From NCBI GenBank assembly GCA_018268595.1, contig JAFDWH010000026.1, positions 124,001 through 188,000 of the forward strand: DNA of 64,000 nt, read 5' to 3'. The notes under the pieces are model-generated. The model was not told where the DNA came from and did not search any database. It saw only the letters and a list, made by a program, of their open reading frames with translations. A program made the translations under genes and the position numbers. Shown here piece after piece: positions 51,215-57,179 of this stretch. The stretch's first letter is position 1, and every line of letters begins with the position of its first letter. The DNA is from Actinomycetota bacterium (lineage in GTDB: Bacteria; Actinomycetota; Thermoleophilia; Solirubrobacterales; Solirubrobacteraceae).

Positions 51215-51319
51215 CCCCTCGCGCTGCCTATCACGGGTCGCGCAGACGAGTTCGGAACCAACCCCGCAGACCTGTGCTGTTGCGCTGAGGCGGTGTCGCG
51301 CGATGGAAAGAACGGTGTC

Positions 51320-51339
51320 GCACTTTGGTACCTGAGTGC
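51320..51339. promoter_or_regulatory. Palindromic operator of the second toxin-antitoxin module
   Basis: GCACT and AGTGC flank a central GGTACC palindrome (20 bp, two mismatched pairs). It ends one base before the TACACT -10 box of the antitoxin gene, a position suited to autorepression. Confidence 0.55.
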
Positions 51340-51352
51340 TACACTGACTCCG

Positions 51353-51610
51353 ATGCCGACGACTCGTCCGCGATACACGGTCACCGACACCGGACACACA
51401 GCAGAGCTGCTGGACCTCGCGCAGCGCGCTTGGCCGGAAGTCTCCGATCGGCGGCAGCTCCTGCTGCGGCTGACGGAGGTCGGTGGTGAGGCGGTGGAGA
51501 CGAAGCTCGCGGAGCAGGGGCAGCGACGTGAGCGCCAGCGCCTCGGGCTCGAGCGCGCGGCGCGGCTGGTCGACGTCGACGCGCTGCTCGGCGATCAGGC
51601 GTGGCGCTGA
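51353..51610 (+). CDS. VapB-type antitoxin
   Basis: An 85-residue protein. The N-terminal part (PRYTVTDTGHTAELLDLAQR) could be a small DNA-binding domain, and the rest is helical and charged, as in antitoxins that wrap PIN toxins. Family by context rather than motif: it overlaps a PIN toxin by 10 bp. TACACT (51340-51345) lies seven bases before the ATG, and a palindrome precedes it. Confidence 0.75.
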   Translation: MPTTRPRYTVTDTGHTAELLDLAQRAWPEVSDRRQLLLRLTEVGGEAVETKLAEQGQRRERQRLGLERAARLVDVDALLGDQAWR

Positions 51611-51969
51611 TCCTGCTCGACAAGTCCGCATGGGTGCGCGGGGGTGCGGACCTGCTCGACTACGGCGAGCTGTGCATGTGCGCGATCACGCGCATGGAGA
51701 TCCTCTACAGCGCTCGGTCCGCCGACGACTACGCCACGCTCCAGGAGGATCTCGCCGCCTACCGCGATCTGCGCATCGACTACGCGACCGTCTCTGCGGC
51801 GGAGTCGGCGCAGCGTGAGCTCGCCGTCTCGGGTCAACACCGCATCTCCCTGCCGGATCTCATCATCGGCGCGTGCGCGCAGCAACACGGTGCGGACGTC
51901 CTGCACGTGGATCGCCATTTCGACGTGATCGCCGAGACGTTCGGCTTCCGCAGCATTCGTCTGCCGTAG
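51601..51969 (+). CDS. VapC-type PIN-domain toxin
   Basis: A 122-residue PIN-domain ribonuclease. ALILLDKSAWVRGGADL (first Asp, with K following as in several VapC groups), MCAITRMEILYSARSADDY (Glu), and RISLPDLIIGACAQQHGADVLHVDRHFDVIA (Asp pair in LPDLII and HVDRHFD; quoted residues fall in two adjacent segments) give the full catalytic set. The GTG start lies inside the antitoxin gene, ensuring coupled synthesis. This is a different subfamily from the PIN toxin at 46082. Confidence 0.9.
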   Translation: MALILLDKSAWVRGGADLLDYGELCMCAITRMEILYSARSADDYATLQEDLAAYRDLRIDYATVSAAESAQRELAVSGQHRISLPDLIIGACAQQHGADVLHVDRHFDVIAETFGFRSIRLP

Positions 51970-52017
51970 CACGCGAGCCGCGATCCGAAGGATCTGGTCG
52001 CTGGCGCAGACCGAGAG

Positions 52018-52090
52018 AGCCGGAACCGGGACTCGAACCCGGGACCCCGTGTTTACAAGACACGTGCTCTACCAGCTGAGCTATTCCGGC
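52018..52090 (-). tRNA. tRNA-Thr (anticodon UGU)
   Basis: A full 73-base cloverleaf on the minus strand. The acceptor stem pairs GCCGGAA with TTCCGGC, the D arm is GCTC-AGCTGGTA-GAGC, the anticodon arm CGTGT-CTTGTAA-ACACG with anticodon TGT, and the T arm CCGGG-TTCGAGT-CCCGG. The discriminator is U and no CCA is encoded. Its 3' end faces the toxin-antitoxin module, a frequent integration layout; no duplicated 3' fragment was spotted. Confidence 0.97.
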
Positions 52091-52135: not shown

Positions 52136-52417
52136 TCAGCGGCCCGCTCGCGCGGGGCCGGTCGCGCTGCCGCCGGGCATCCGCAGCCGCTCCTCGTAGA
52201 CGCGGATCAGCTCGGACAAGGGCACGTCGAGGCCGTTCGCGATGCCGACGAGCGCGGCGAACGAGGGCGTAATCTCGCCGCGCTCGATCTGTCCGACGTA
52301 CTTGCGCCCGACGCCGCCCTTGGCACCGACGCGCTCCTGCGAGAGCTGCTGGCGGGCGCGGATCTCGCGGATCGCGGCGGCGAGCGCACGCAGCTCGGCG
52401 TCGATGGTCGGAGGCAC
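52136..52417 (-). CDS. XRE-family HTH regulator
   Basis: A 93-residue Cro/C1-type repressor-like protein. The five-helix HTH is clear: IREIRARQQLSQERVGAKGG (helices 1-2), then VGRKYVGQIERGEITPSFAA (recognition helix and turn) and LVGIANGLDVPLSELI. The short C-tail is Gly/Arg-rich. GTG 52417 is chosen because upstream residues lack similarity. It sits just beyond tRNA-Thr in the accessory-looking stretch. Confidence 0.85.
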   Translation of the reverse strand: MPPTIDAELRALAAAIREIRARQQLSQERVGAKGGVGRKYVGQIERGEITPSFAALVGIANGLDVPLSELIRVYEERLRMPGGSATGPARAGR

Positions 52418-52560
52418 CGCGCGAACTCTTGTTTGGTTCCGGGTTGCTTTCCACCCGCCATAGGCAGCAAAATGTGTCGTGCAGGGGGTATTTGACCCTG
52501 TCCAAGGGGTCTGTCGGCGTTCCCTCGCTCGACTCGGCACGCCACACGGATCCCGGCGAC

Positions 52561-52636
52561 GAGCCCGCGATCCCCCAGCGGGCTCTCGACGCGACAGCGC
52601 CCCGGCCTCCCGAAGCCGGGGCGCTCTCGTGTCGCG
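52561..52636. terminator. Two adjacent strong hairpins
   Basis: GAGCCCGC/GCGGGCTC (52561-52568 with 52578-52585) is followed by an 11-bp stem AGCGCCCCGGC/GCCGGGGCGCT (52596-52606 with 52615-52625), extended by GCGACA/TGTCGC outside it. They stand just past the stop of the minus-strand gene at 52647 and probably end its transcript. The rest of 52418-52646 is AT-richer and holds only a small hairpin (GACCC/GGGTC, 52494-52511). Confidence 0.6.
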
Positions 52637-52646
52637 CCCGGCCCGC

Positions 52647-53138
52647 TCAACCCTGCGCCGGCTCGCCGTTGAGGCGCCGCTCCAGCGCGCCCATCACGAC
52701 GCCGAACAGCAGGTGCCGCCACGTCGCCTGCGCGAGTCCGCGGCGGTTCCCCCGCAGGCGCGGCAGCTCCGCGCGCGCGGGGTGGAAGCGGTCGCTCAGT
52801 CGCCCGAGCGGCCACAGCCCGAAGTTCTCCGCCTGCGCCACGAGCGGCGCGCGCGCCTCCGCAGGCACCCCGGCGCGAGCGAGCGCCGGCGCCAGCACGC
52901 CCGCGTGGACGGCGCCGAGGACGGCTCCGTTCTGCACGTGCAGCGCGAGGCCGAGCGGATACCAGCGGCTGCGCGGAGCGCGCGGCAGCAGCGCCCGCCC
53001 GAGCAGCTCCACGTCGTCGTAGCCGCCGCGGAAGACGCGCTTGTCGAGCGGCTGCTGCAGCGCCCACACCGCGGCTGCGAGCCCGCCCGCGAGCGCGCCG
53101 CGCGCCATCCGTCTCCGCTGCCCCGGCCCGAGCGCCAT
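52647..53138 (-). CDS. Uncharacterised membrane-associated protein
   Basis: A 163-residue protein with moderately hydrophobic segments (ARGALAGGLAAAVWALQQPL near residue 12, VQNGAVLGAVHAGVLAPAL near 68, ATWRHLLFGVVMGALERRL near the end). Conserved-looking polar residues include DKRVFRGGYDDVELLG. Not recognised. TACAGT (53151-53146) lies seven bases before ATG 53138, supporting a genuine leaderless gene, divergent from plsC-gpsA with 46 bp between starts. Confidence 0.65.
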   Translation of the reverse strand: MALGPGQRRRMARGALAGGLAAAVWALQQPLDKRVFRGGYDDVELLGRALLPRAPRSRWYPLGLALHVQNGAVLGAVHAGVLAPALARAGVPAEARAPLVAQAENFGLWPLGRLSDRFHPARAELPRLRGNRRGLAQATWRHLLFGVVMGALERRLNGEPAQG

Positions 53139-53184
53139 CGTCGCGACTGTAACGTGCCACCGCGCGGCGGGTACCTAACGCGGA

Positions 53185-54846
53185 ATGGATCTGCAGCGAC
53201 TCCATCGGCGTGCACGCGAGCGCGGCGTGAACCCGATCGTCTACTGGCTCGCCCGCGCGGTCCTGCAGCCGTTCTTCCACCTCTACTTCCGCCTCTCGCG
53301 GATCGGGCGCGAGCACATCCCGGTCGACGGGCCGGTGATCTTCGCCGCCAACCACCGCAGCTTCCTCGACCCGTTCGTGATCGGCACGATGATGCGGCGG
53401 CCGATCTACTACGTCGCCAAGAAGGAGCTGTTCGCCAACCGCGTGCAGGCGTGGCTGCTGAACGCGCTCGGCGCCTTCCCGGTCGACCGCGGCAACGCCG
53501 ACCAGGACATGGTCGAGACCGCCAAGGCGATCCTCGCGCGCGGCGACTGCGTGCTGATCTTCCCCGAGGGGACGCGCGTCCGGCCCGGTCCGCCCGGCCC
53601 CGCCAAGCGCGGCGTCGGCCGGCTCGCGTTGGAGACCGGCGTGCCGGTCGTCCCCGTCGCCGTGATCGGCACCACCGATGTGCGTCGCGGCTGGCGCGTC
53701 TGCCCCAGGAAGGTGCGCATCCGCGCCGGGCGTCCGCTCACCTTCCCGCGTGTCGAGTCGGCCTCGCGCGAGCTGGCGCAGGCGGTCACCGACCGCATCT
53801 GGCCGTGCGTGATGCTGCAGTGGGAGTGGCTCGGCGGGATCTCGCCTCTGCGCCGCGCCGCCGTCGTCGGGGCGGGCGCGTGGGGGACCGCGCTGGCGGT
53901 CGCGTTCGCGCGCGCCGGGCTCGACGTCGAGCTGGGCTGCCGCTCGCGCGAGCAGGCCGAGGCGCTCCGGCGCGAGCGCGTAAACATGCGTTACCTGCCA
54001 GGCGTGCCGCTGCCCGAGCGGGTGCGACCGTGTCACGCGGCGGAGCTGGAGCTGGCGGTCCACGACCTCGTCTGCCTCGCCGTGCCGGCGCGCGACCTGC
54101 CCGCCGTGCTCGCTGCGCACGGCAGCGAGATCCCCCAGCGAGCGGGCGTGCTGGTCGTCTCCAAGGGGCTCGTGCCGCCGCTCGGCACGTTGCCGTCCGC
54201 CTACGCGGCGGAGCGCGTGCACGCGCGCACGGTCGCCGCGCTCGCCGGTCCGAGCCACGCCGCCGACGCGCTCGCGTCGGGCGCCTCGGTCGTGCTCGCG
54301 ACGACCGACGACGCGTTCGCGCAGGAGCTGGGACACGCGCTCGCGAGCGCCGGCTTCGACGTGCAGGCCACGCGCGACGTGACCGGCGTCGAGCTGGCCG
54401 GCTGCGCCAAGAACGCCGCCGTGCTGGCGGCCGCCGCGGCCGCCGCGGCGGCCGGACCCAACGTCGCCGGCGCCGCCGCGGGCAAGGTCTTCTCGGAGAT
54501 CGACGGCCTCGCCCGCCGTCTTGGCGCTGCGCCCGACACGTTCGCCGGGCTGGCCGGCGCGGGCGACCTCGTCGCGACCGTCGTCGCCGACGGCAGTCGC
54601 AACCGCCGCGCCGGCGAGCTGCTCGCGCAAGGCGTCCCGGCCGCCGAGATCGCGCCGGCGCTCGGCCATGCGGTCGAGGCGGTCGACACCGTCCCGCTGC
54701 TGGCCGCGCTGCTGCGCGACGCGCAGCTGCCCGCGCCCGCGACGCTCGGCCTCGCCGCGCTCGTCGAGGGGCGCGTCGAGCCCGACCGCTGGACGGCCGC
54801 CGTGACCCAGCCGGCCCGCCGGCCGCGAAAGGCCCGCGCGGCCTGA
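53185..54846 (+). CDS. PlsC-GpsA fusion: acylglycerol-phosphate acyltransferase + glycerol-3-phosphate dehydrogenase
   Basis: A 553-residue single frame holding two complete enzymes. Residues 1-215 are PlsC-type: NHRSFLDP at 56-63 (catalytic His/Asp) and FPEGTR at 126-131. A linker of about ten residues (WEWLGGISPLRR) leads to GpsA: NAD-binding GAGAWGTALA at 229-238, AGPSHA near 354, catalytic Lys in LAGCAKN (409), GLAGAGDLV and SRNRR at 471-475. GpsA makes glycerol-3-phosphate; PlsC acylates the 1-acyl form, so non-consecutive steps of phospholipid synthesis are joined. plsX/plsY-type enzymes must act between. An internal start at ATG 53812 could also yield GpsA alone. Confidence 0.92.
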   Translation: MDLQRLHRRARERGVNPIVYWLARAVLQPFFHLYFRLSRIGREHIPVDGPVIFAANHRSFLDPFVIGTMMRRPIYYVAKKELFANRVQAWLLNALGAFPVDRGNADQDMVETAKAILARGDCVLIFPEGTRVRPGPPGPAKRGVGRLALETGVPVVPVAVIGTTDVRRGWRVCPRKVRIRAGRPLTFPRVESASRELAQAVTDRIWPCVMLQWEWLGGISPLRRAAVVGAGAWGTALAVAFARAGLDVELGCRSREQAEALRRERVNMRYLPGVPLPERVRPCHAAELELAVHDLVCLAVPARDLPAVLAAHGSEIPQRAGVLVVSKGLVPPLGTLPSAYAAERVHARTVAALAGPSHAADALASGASVVLATTDDAFAQELGHALASAGFDVQATRDVTGVELAGCAKNAAVLAAAAAAAAAGPNVAGAAAGKVFSEIDGLARRLGAAPDTFAGLAGAGDLVATVVADGSRNRRAGELLAQGVPAAEIAPALGHAVEAVDTVPLLAALLRDAQLPAPATLGLAALVEGRVEPDRWTAAVTQPARRPRKARAA

Positions 54847-54868
54847 GAAGGGGGATACTGCGCATGCG

Positions 54869-55435
54869 GTGTCCGATCCCCAGTCCCTCTCAAAGCCGGA
54901 CCTCGACCGCAGCTTCTCCGAGCTGTACCGCACCCATCTGCGCGACGTCTACTCCTACGCGTACTACCGCGTCGGCAACCACCACGACGCCGAGGACCTC
55001 ACGGAGCAGACGTTCCTGCAGGCCTACCGCCACTACGAGCGCGCGCTGCGCGAGTCGGACGGCCGCCCGCTGCGCCCGTGGCTCATCCGCATCGCGCACA
55101 ACCTCGCCGCCAACTACTACCGCGACCGCGCCCGCCGGCCCGAGTCCGCGATCGAGGACGCGGCCGTGATCAGCGCGCCGCACACGACCGAGACGCTCGT
55201 CGAGGGGCGCGAGGAGCTGGAGCAGATCCTCGCCGGCGTGCAGCAGCTGCCGGACGACCGTCGCGAGGCGCTGATCATGCGCTTCGCGCTCGGCATGGAC
55301 AACCGCGAGATCGCACGCGCGCTCGGGCGCAGCGACGGCGCCACGAAGGTGCTGCTGCACCGCGCGATCAAGCAGCTCGAGGGGATCGTGAGCGCGCACG
55401 ACGGCGCCCGGCCGGCCCCGGGGGGCGCGCGATGA
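54869..55435 (+). CDS. ECF-type RNA polymerase sigma factor
   Basis: A 188-residue factor with only regions 2 and 4. Region 2: LYRTHLRDVYSYAYYRVGNH, HDAEDLTEQTFLQAYRH and RPWLIRIAHNLAANYYRDR. Region 4: LPDDRREALIMRFALGMDNR, then EIARALGRSDGATKVLLHRA. GTG 54869 is nine bases after GATACT (54854-54859), a near-match to the leaderless pattern. It overlaps the next small membrane-protein gene by 4 bp, the usual arrangement for a sigma/anti-sigma pair, although that partner lacks a zinc motif. Confidence 0.9.
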   Translation: MSDPQSLSKPDLDRSFSELYRTHLRDVYSYAYYRVGNHHDAEDLTEQTFLQAYRHYERALRESDGRPLRPWLIRIAHNLAANYYRDRARRPESAIEDAAVISAPHTTETLVEGREELEQILAGVQQLPDDRREALIMRFALGMDNREIARALGRSDGATKVLLHRAIKQLEGIVSAHDGARPAPGGAR

Positions 55436-55842: not shown

Positions 55843-56439
55843 ATGCCCGACCGTCGCGCCGCCCACACGCCGTCGCTCCGCGACCTCGCCGACGAGGACC
55901 TGATGCAGCTCGTGCAGCGCGCCGAGGCGGCTGCGTTCGAGGTCGTCTACGACCGTCACGCCGGCGCCGCCTTCTCGCTTGCGTACCGCATGTGCGGCGC
56001 GCGGCAGCTCGCGGAGGAGGTCGTGCAGGAGGCGTTCCTGTCGATCTGGCGCAGCGGCGCGCGCTACGACCGCCGCCGCGGCAGCGTGCGCACGTGGATC
56101 CTCGGCATCGCGCACCACCGCGCGATCGACGTGTTGCGGCGGGGCGTCGTGCAGGACCGCCACCGCGCCTCTGACGAAGGGCTCGAGGAGCGCTTCGAGG
56201 CGAACGACAGGACCGACGTCGAGGTCGCCCGGCGCGAAGAGGCGCTCGAGGTGCGCGGCGCGCTCGACGGGCTGCCGGACGAGCAGCGGCGCGCGATCGA
56301 GCTCGCCTACTACGGCGGCTTCACGCAGAGCGAGATCGCCGAGATGCTCGGCGTCCCGATCGGCACCGTGAAGGGCCGCATGCGGCTCGGGATGGAGAAG
56401 ATGCGCGACCGGCTCGCGCCGACCGAGGTGGTCCCGTGA
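55843..56439 (+). CDS. ECF-type sigma factor (RskA-regulated type)
   Basis: A 198-residue ECF factor. Region 2 includes LVQRAEAAAFEVVYDRHAGA, ARQLAEEVVQEAFLSIWRSG and VRTWILGIAHHRAIDVLRR. Region 4 includes LDGLPDEQRRAIELAYYGGF, then EIAEMLGVPIGTVKGRMRL. The sequence is of the SigK/SigL group whose members are held by RskA-like anti-sigma factors, and such a gene overlaps its 3' end by 4 bp. This second sigma gene is only about 60 bases after the preceding pair but shows little identity to the first. Confidence 0.92.
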   Translation: MPDRRAAHTPSLRDLADEDLMQLVQRAEAAAFEVVYDRHAGAAFSLAYRMCGARQLAEEVVQEAFLSIWRSGARYDRRRGSVRTWILGIAHHRAIDVLRRGVVQDRHRASDEGLEERFEANDRTDVEVARREEALEVRGALDGLPDEQRRAIELAYYGGFTQSEIAEMLGVPIGTVKGRMRLGMEKMRDRLAPTEVVP

Positions 56440-57179
56440 GCGAGCGCTGCACCCACGCCGAGACCGTCGCCGCCTACCTGCTCGGCGCGCTCACCGACGC
56501 CGAGCGGCGCGAGTTCGAGATGCATCTGACGGCGTGCGTCCCCTGCCGCGAGGATCTCGCCGGCCTGCGCGTCGTCGCCGATGCGCTGCCGCTCGCGGTT
56601 CCGCCGGTCGCCCCGTCTGCGGCGCTGCGCGACCGCCTGCTGGAGACGGTGCGCGCCGAGGCCGAGGTGCTGTCGGCGGCCGGGCCGACCGCCGACAGAC
56701 CGCCCGCGCAACGCCGCGGGCGCCGCCGCTTCGTCCGGCCGCTCGGCCGGCCGCTGGGGCTCACCGCCGCCGCGCTGGCGTTGCTGCTCGGCGTCGCGCT
56801 CGGCTTCGGCGTCGGCGCGGCGACGAACGAGCGCACGGAGACGCAGACGGTCGTGCAGGTGCGCACCGTGCAGGCGCGAGTCGACGCGACTGCGGCGCCG
56901 CGCGGGACGGCGGTGATCGTCGTGCGCGACGGCGTCGCGACGCTGCGCGTGCGCGGGCTGCCGGCGCCGCCGCCCGGGAAGGTCTACGAGGTGTGGCTGC
57001 TGCGGCGCGGCGCGGCCGCGCCGTCGCCGACCGACGCGCTCTTCAGCGTCAGCACGCGGGGCAGCGGCCGCGTCGCGCTGCCGAGCGTGCGCGGCGTCGA
57101 GGCGGTGCTGGTGACGGCCGAGCCGGACGGCGGAAGCCGGGCGCCGACGTCGCAGCCGTTCATCAACGCGGCGCTGTAG
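56436..57179 (+). CDS. RskA-type membrane anti-sigma factor
   Basis: A 247-residue protein. The N-terminal zinc-associated anti-sigma domain has His at HAETVAAYLLGALTDAE and the HLTACVPC motif (H-x3-C-x2-C, residues 30-37). A membrane helix follows at about 109-130 (LTAAALALLLGVALGFGVGA). The extracytoplasmic RskA domain begins near 150 (AVIVVRDGVATLRVRGLPA, then GKVYEVWLL). It would hold the sigma factor encoded just upstream until proteolysis releases it; the rhomboid gene next door is an unrelated intramembrane protease family but worth noting. Confidence 0.93.
   Translation: MSERCTHAETVAAYLLGALTDAERREFEMHLTACVPCREDLAGLRVVADALPLAVPPVAPSAALRDRLLETVRAEAEVLSAAGPTADRPPAQRRGRRRFVRPLGRPLGLTAAALALLLGVALGFGVGAATNERTETQTVVQVRTVQARVDATAAPRGTAVIVVRDGVATLRVRGLPAPPPGKVYEVWLLRRGAAAPSPTDALFSVSTRGSGRVALPSVRGVEAVLVTAEPDGGSRAPTSQPFINAAL

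What the first reader, a model, noticed from the sequence alone, without database searches (positions are those of the whole stretch)
53185..54846. Single-frame fusion of PlsC acyltransferase and GpsA dehydrogenase
Both enzymes are complete with intact active sites (NHRSFLDP, FPEGTR; GAGAWGTALA, Lys 409, SRNRR) and joined by about ten residues. GpsA makes glycerol-3-phosphate and PlsC performs the second acylation, so the fusion joins the entry and third steps of phospholipid synthesis and could tether the soluble dehydrogenase to the membrane. An internal ATG might also release free GpsA.
Basis: partly seen in the sequence, partly recalled or inferred. Interest (0 to 1): 0.68.

Follow-up and report, generated by a model that had tools for sequence, protein, structure and literature searches.

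The report
PlsC–GpsA fusion in Solirubrobacterales
Two enzymes that build membrane lipids, normally made from separate genes, are one protein in a whole order of soil bacteria, and in this genome the fused copy is the only recognisable version of one of them, so it is probably a real two-in-one enzyme.

Summary
Window 53185-54846 is one 553-aa frame: a PlsC-type acyltransferase (model residues 16-219) runs into a glycerol-3-phosphate dehydrogenase, GpsA (220-543), with about 8 linker residues. It is no assembly error: full-length orthologues occur in dozens of Solirubrobacterales genomes from four families, including complete Conexibacter woesei. None was seen in 24 genomes from the rest of the class or in 358 from other classes of the phylum. 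Neighbouring genes are conserved. The fused GpsA is one clade, sister to a separate GpsA that many relatives also carry. In this genome (98.9% complete), two whole families and one further genus, the fused copy is the only GpsA found. There its catalytic residues are intact and purifying selection is about as strong as on the PlsC half. In many relatives that keep the separate GpsA, the fused GpsA domain has decayed or been deleted in place, leaving PlsC alone. So the fused GpsA is very probably an active enzyme here, and losable when redundant. Unexpectedly, PlsY, the usual first acyltransferase, is undetected here and in 90 of 101 genomes, so the exact step of the fused acyltransferase is open.

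The parts
53185..54846 (+). plsC-gpsA fusion gene, 553 aa plus stop
53185..53832 (+). PlsC-type acyltransferase half (residues 1-216); HX4D motif NHRSFLD, FPEGTR
   Evidence: PF01553; above the TIGR00530 cut-off, 107.8 against 102.95 bits; 5KYM Z 20.4 over residues 16-219
53833..53853 (+). linker GGISPLR (residues 217-223) between the PlsC C-terminal helix and the first Rossmann strand
   Evidence: Secondary structure of the model; junction comparison
53854..54843 (+). GpsA half (residues 224-553): NAD(P)-binding and C-terminal domains; K327, K409, N410, D461, T465, R472, N473 kept
   Evidence: PF01210, PF07479; 3k96 GpsA Z 40.6 over 220-543; residue table; invariance
53812..53814 (+). internal ATG (M210) considered as an internal start: not conserved, no ribosome-binding site
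54869..55435 (+). ECF-type sigma factor gene; conserved downstream neighbour, not part of the enzyme
   Evidence: PF04542/PF08281; same strand and downstream in 102 of 117 loci
52647..53138 (-). divergent upstream gene of unknown function; conserved neighbour, not part of the enzyme
   Evidence: No Pfam match; opposite strand and upstream in 83 of 117 loci

Best explanation
A bifunctional phospholipid-synthesis enzyme specific, as far as seen, to Solirubrobacterales. The N-terminal PlsC half sits on the membrane and acylates a glycerol-phosphate acceptor (most likely lysophosphatidate to phosphatidate). The C-terminal GpsA half reduces DHAP to sn-glycerol-3-phosphate with NAD(P)H, so the precursor is made at the membrane where it is used. 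Shown by sequence: one frame, both folds predicted with high confidence, intact catalytic residues, order-wide distribution, single origin of the fused GpsA, no other GpsA found in this genome, purifying selection where it is the sole GpsA. Inferred: that one uncleaved protein is made, both activities, membrane location. In this genome it would be the only GpsA, with glycerol kinase as a second source of glycerol-3-phosphate. In relatives that keep a separate GpsA, the fused GpsA domain is redundant and is often lost.
For: Single GpsA in the own genome. Fused copy is the only GpsA in families f3 and f4, in genus g24, and in G090. Catalytic residues intact in all 27 complete fused copies of genomes without another GpsA other than the three exceptions named below, out of 81 genomes with an assessable locus. 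Among 27 genomes with a decayed or deleted fused GpsA, 24 have another one (Fisher p = 0.0006, not corrected for kinship). dN/dS of the GpsA half is 0.016-0.10 in five of seven sole-GpsA pairs (0.13 and 0.25 in the other two), about equal to or below the PlsC half, and 0.35-0.47 in two of three decaying pairs. Fused GpsA is a clade (support 92) sister to the separate GpsA (97). Model pLDDT 91, pTM 0.85; GpsA half like 3k96 (Z 40.6), PlsC half like 5KYM (Z 20.4). Synteny. GlpK present.
Against: No biochemical or proteomic data. Three genomes (G051, G059, G084) have a decayed fused GpsA and no other found; two are incomplete. The kinship-corrected pair test has only 4 supported pairs and shows nothing either way. 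Both GpsA copies of the order have an unusual GxNxAGAAAGxxF stretch in place of the usual GDNA/TKAAxxxRG, and the window's GpsA is below the NCBIfam subfamily cut-offs (205.8 against 257 bits). Genus g25 (G030, one contig; G059) has no GpsA found at all, so GpsA is not indispensable in the order.
Confidence: 0.75

Rival explanations
1. The fused acyltransferase acylates glycerol-3-phosphate itself (as the PlsC-like PlsM of mycobacteria does), so the protein carries out two consecutive steps, DHAP to G3P to lysophosphatidate, in place of the missing PlsY. G3P would pass directly from one half to the other.
For: PlsY (PF02660) undetected in this genome and in 90 of 101 genomes searched, while PlsX is present in all 14 tested. 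Only three PF01553 proteins in the genome. A PlsC homologue that acylates G3P is documented (PlsM, PMC10593935).
Against: The fused half passes the TIGR00530 1-acylglycerol-3-phosphate acyltransferase cut-off. The stand-alone relative at C18:27427 has a PlsB-like EGGRSR motif and is at least as good a candidate for the first step. PlsC survives alone where GpsA was lost, so it does not depend on a fused G3P source.
Confidence: 0.2
2. The fused GpsA domain is a paralogue with a changed substrate or a structural role, not a G3P dehydrogenase.
For: Divergent GxNxAGAAAG stretch, sub-threshold NCBIfam scores, frequent decay, GpsA-less members of genus g25.
Against: All tested catalytic positions kept, strong constraint where it is the sole GpsA, closest fold is GpsA/GPD rather than PanE (Z 40.6 against 25.8). 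The separate GpsA shares the same unusual stretch.
Confidence: 0.1
3. Two proteins are made: free GpsA by internal initiation or by proteolysis at the linker.
For: An ATG stands exactly at the boundary in f4 (5 of 5) and most f3 genomes (10 of 16).
Against: In the window that codon is CTG; M210 is not conserved; no GGAGG is enriched upstream. Short linker and pTM 0.85 suggest a compact junction.
Confidence: 0.08
4. Assembly or sequencing artefact.
For: None found.
Against: Dozens of independent genomes, one complete isolate genome, conserved neighbours.
Confidence: 0.01

Closest known systems
Stand-alone bacterial GpsA (NAD(P)-dependent G3P dehydrogenase; Coxiella 3k96, T. maritima 1z82)
   Same: Fold and catalytic residues
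   Different: Fused behind PlsC; GxNxAGAAAG stretch in place of GDNA/TKAA
Stand-alone PlsC (T. maritima 5KYM)
   Same: HX4D and FPEGTR motifs, fold over residues 16-219
   Different: Carries GpsA at its C-terminus
Dunaliella salina DsGPDH (6iuy), a longer GPDH chain; known from the field as a phosphatase-GPDH fusion (own knowledge)
   Same: A GPDH domain within a longer chain, joined to another glycerol-phosphate enzyme
   Different: Other partner (phosphatase, not tested here) and eukaryotic
Mycobacterial PlsM (Rv2182c), PMC10593935
   Same: PlsC-like acyltransferase in an actinobacterium without PlsY
   Different: Not fused; shown to act on G3P, untested here; mycobacteria also lack PlsX, which is present here
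plsC-der-(plsY)-gpsA gene cluster of the same class
   Same: Same two genes close together on one strand
   Different: Separate genes with der, and in one genome plsY, between them

Membership tests
GpsA / NAD-dependent G3P dehydrogenase | PF01210 and PF07479 above cut-off in order | tested here: met
   92.8 and 86.9 bits against 23.1 and 25
GpsA / NAD-dependent G3P dehydrogenase | Catalytic Lys pair, Asp, Thr, Arg-Asn (K327, K409, D461, T465, R472-N473) | tested here: met
GpsA / NAD-dependent G3P dehydrogenase | NCBIfam GpsA subfamily/equivalog cut-off | tested here: not met
   best 205.8 against 257 bits; a divergent member by score, though the predicted fold is unambiguous. This is a naming threshold rather than a defining chemical feature
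GpsA / NAD-dependent G3P dehydrogenase | DHAP reduction | not testable with these tools
   Needs an assay
PlsC / 1-acylglycerol-3-phosphate acyltransferase | HX4D and EGTR motifs, PF01553 | tested here: met
   (H57, D62, E128, G129, R131 invariant)
PlsC / 1-acylglycerol-3-phosphate acyltransferase | TIGR00530 cut-off | tested here: met
   107.8 against 102.95 bits in the window; the C. woesei orthologue scores 94.0, below it
PlsC / 1-acylglycerol-3-phosphate acyltransferase | Acceptor is lysophosphatidate, not G3P | not testable with these tools
   Open because PlsY is undetected
PlsM-like G3P sn-2 acyltransferase | Orthology to Rv2182c | not tested
   No M. tuberculosis sequence was compared

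The most novel reading that the evidence does not exclude
The fusion is a two-step enzyme that makes glycerol-3-phosphate and acylates it on one polypeptide, replacing PlsY in an order of bacteria that keeps PlsX but has mostly lost PlsY: a rewired first committed step of phospholipid synthesis.
Probability: 0.18. Interest if true: 0.75.

Novelty: new variant of a known kind. Interest (0 to 1): 0.45.

Why it matters
It would tie G3P supply physically to acylation at the membrane, an arrangement for which no published account was found in the papers searched. The order is a natural experiment: lineages keep the fused GpsA, the separate GpsA, both, or (genus g25) apparently neither. That makes it possible to test whether co-localisation has a benefit. 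The near absence of PlsY with PlsX kept leaves an open question, which enzyme does the first acylation, and names two testable candidates in this genome.

Tried and rejected
Internal start for free GpsA: rejected for the window. Assembly error: rejected. Fused GpsA as a dead domain in this genome: not supported. A second GpsA in the own genome: none found with PF01210, PF07479 or the C. woesei separate GpsA; two genomes first counted as lacking a second GpsA (G043, G100) proved to have fragments of it and were moved, giving the corrected table. Kinship-corrected sister-pair test: too few supported pairs to decide. Literature searches for a PlsC-GpsA fusion found nothing on it. Two family scans failed on wrong coordinates and were repeated without the faulty entry.

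Full report
What is there. The window encodes one uninterrupted protein of 553 residues at 53185-54846. Pfam finds PF01553 at 41-160, PF01210 at 226-376 and PF07479 at 398-535. An AlphaFold2 model from 41 fused relatives has pLDDT 91 and pTM 0.85. Its residues 16-219 match T. maritima PlsC (5KYM, Z 20.4, rmsd 2.9) and residues 220-543 match Coxiella GpsA (3k96, Z 40.6, rmsd 2.1). The last PlsC helix ends at 215 and the first Rossmann strand begins at 224.

It is real and old. A search of 101 related genomes found full-length fused frames in families f1 to f4 of the order at 50-80% identity, including C. woesei, recognised by its exact genome length (G003, PMC3035278), and C. arvalis (L034). 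In a 396-genome sample of the phylum, 14 genomes come from the order. All listed matches from the 24 genomes of the rest of the class and from the 358 of other classes cover one half of the query, apart from a few that run a short way over the boundary, as expected of separate plsC or gpsA genes (its list is cut, but full-length matches rank first). In class relatives the two genes can lie close together with der, and in one genome also plsY, between them. In the order, the gene keeps a divergent upstream neighbour (83 of 117 loci, some of which are cut short or duplicated between collections) and a downstream ECF sigma factor (102 of 117).

Two GpsA lineages. Many genomes carry a second, separate GpsA, 43-50% identical. 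In a tree of 84 sequences the fused GpsA domains form one clade (SH-aLRT 92), the separate ones another (97), sister to each other and apart from the class outgroup. The simplest reading is one duplication in the ancestor of the order and one fusion. The PlsC halves, fused or alone at this locus, are also one clade (98/97).

Natural test of function. I scored catalytic positions (K327, K409, N410, D461, T465, R472, N473) for 81 genomes with an assessable locus; loci cut by contig ends were set aside by eye. After correction with the separate-GpsA search, 54 have an intact fused GpsA, 27 of them with no other GpsA; 27 have a decayed, truncated or deleted fused GpsA, and 24 of these have another GpsA (Fisher p = 0.0006; for genomes at least 90% complete 26/23 against 18/2, p = 0.005). 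Three genomes (G019, G039 and the other S-for-T465 cases) were counted as intact because the remaining positions are kept. These p-values ignore kinship. On the PlsC tree the fused state changes 16 times and the separate state 9 times; a sister-pair test on supported branches has four pairs and is uninformative. The three exceptions, decayed and without another GpsA, are G084 (84% complete), G051 (440 contigs; its two nearest relatives G017 and G037 have the separate gene) and G059. G059 and G030 (genus g25; G030 is a single contig) appear to lack GpsA altogether but have glycerol kinase.

Selection. Rough Nei-Gojobori dN/dS of the GpsA half is 0.016-0.10 in five of the seven pairs where it is the sole GpsA (G029/G045, G063/G072, G063/G069, G066/G069, G079/G081) and 0.13 and 0.25 in the other two, similar to or below the PlsC half. 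It is 0.16-0.41 in pairs where the fused copy is intact and at least one genome has a second GpsA, and 0.47, 0.35 and 0.28 in the three pairs that include a decaying copy. High GC makes dS unreliable, so I rely on the contrast between the two halves of the same protein.

This genome. G000 (98.9% complete, 31 contigs) has one GpsA by PF01210, PF07479 and the C. woesei separate GpsA, three PF01553 proteins, glycerol kinase and PlsX, and no detectable PlsY. PlsY is found in only 11 of 101 genomes. Which protein does the first acylation is therefore open. The fused half passes the LPA acyltransferase model TIGR00530 (the C. woesei orthologue falls just below it). The stand-alone relative at C18:27427 has an EGGRSR motif that resembles PlsB (the PlsB comparison is from general knowledge). 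Mycobacteria lack PlsY too and use a PlsC-like enzyme, PlsM, on G3P (PMC10593935).

Junction. Where GpsA is deleted, PlsC still ends in LQW(D/E)WLGG or a variant, followed by an unrelated tail, in the same gene neighbourhood: GpsA was lost in place. The window's internal ATG (M210) is not conserved. The boundary codon is ATG in f4 and most f3 genomes, perhaps a relic of the old gpsA start, but CTG in the window, and GGAGG is not enriched upstream.

Conclusion. A genuine, order-wide fusion, most likely active in both halves here. The roles of the residues are taken from general knowledge of the GPD family; activity, membrane location and absence of processing are inferred. Fusions outside the phylum were not searched.

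Noticed in passing
whole genome G000 and relatives: PlsY undetected in this genome and in 90 of 101 genomes searched (most of them only counted, not listed), while PlsX is present in all 14 tested; the first acyltransferase of the order is not identified.
   Followed up: partly
G030, G059 (genus g25): No GpsA of any kind found although G030 is a single contig; both have glycerol kinase.
   Followed up: partly
G034:C1:1728318, G023:C28:1289, G025:C1:1860999 and others: A third GpsA type, scoring 177-191 bits with PF07479 against about 70-112 for most of the order's own copies, in scattered genomes; possibly acquired.
   Followed up: no
G061 (L143), G064 (L140), G010 (L095): The frame stays open through the fused GpsA domain although catalytic residues are lost: possible pseudoenzyme domain.
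   Followed up: partly
window 51601-51969 (+): PIN-domain protein (PF01850), probably a VapC-type toxin with a small upstream partner at 51293-51610.
   Followed up: partly
window 55843-57179 (+): Second ECF sigma factor followed by an RskA-like anti-sigma factor.
   Followed up: partly
window 52017-52090 (-): tRNA-Thr (TGT).
   Followed up: yes
window 52207-54933 (-) and 52479-55169 (+): Mechanical open frames of about 900 aa overlapping the fusion in other frames; expected from high GC, no sign of coding.
   Followed up: partly
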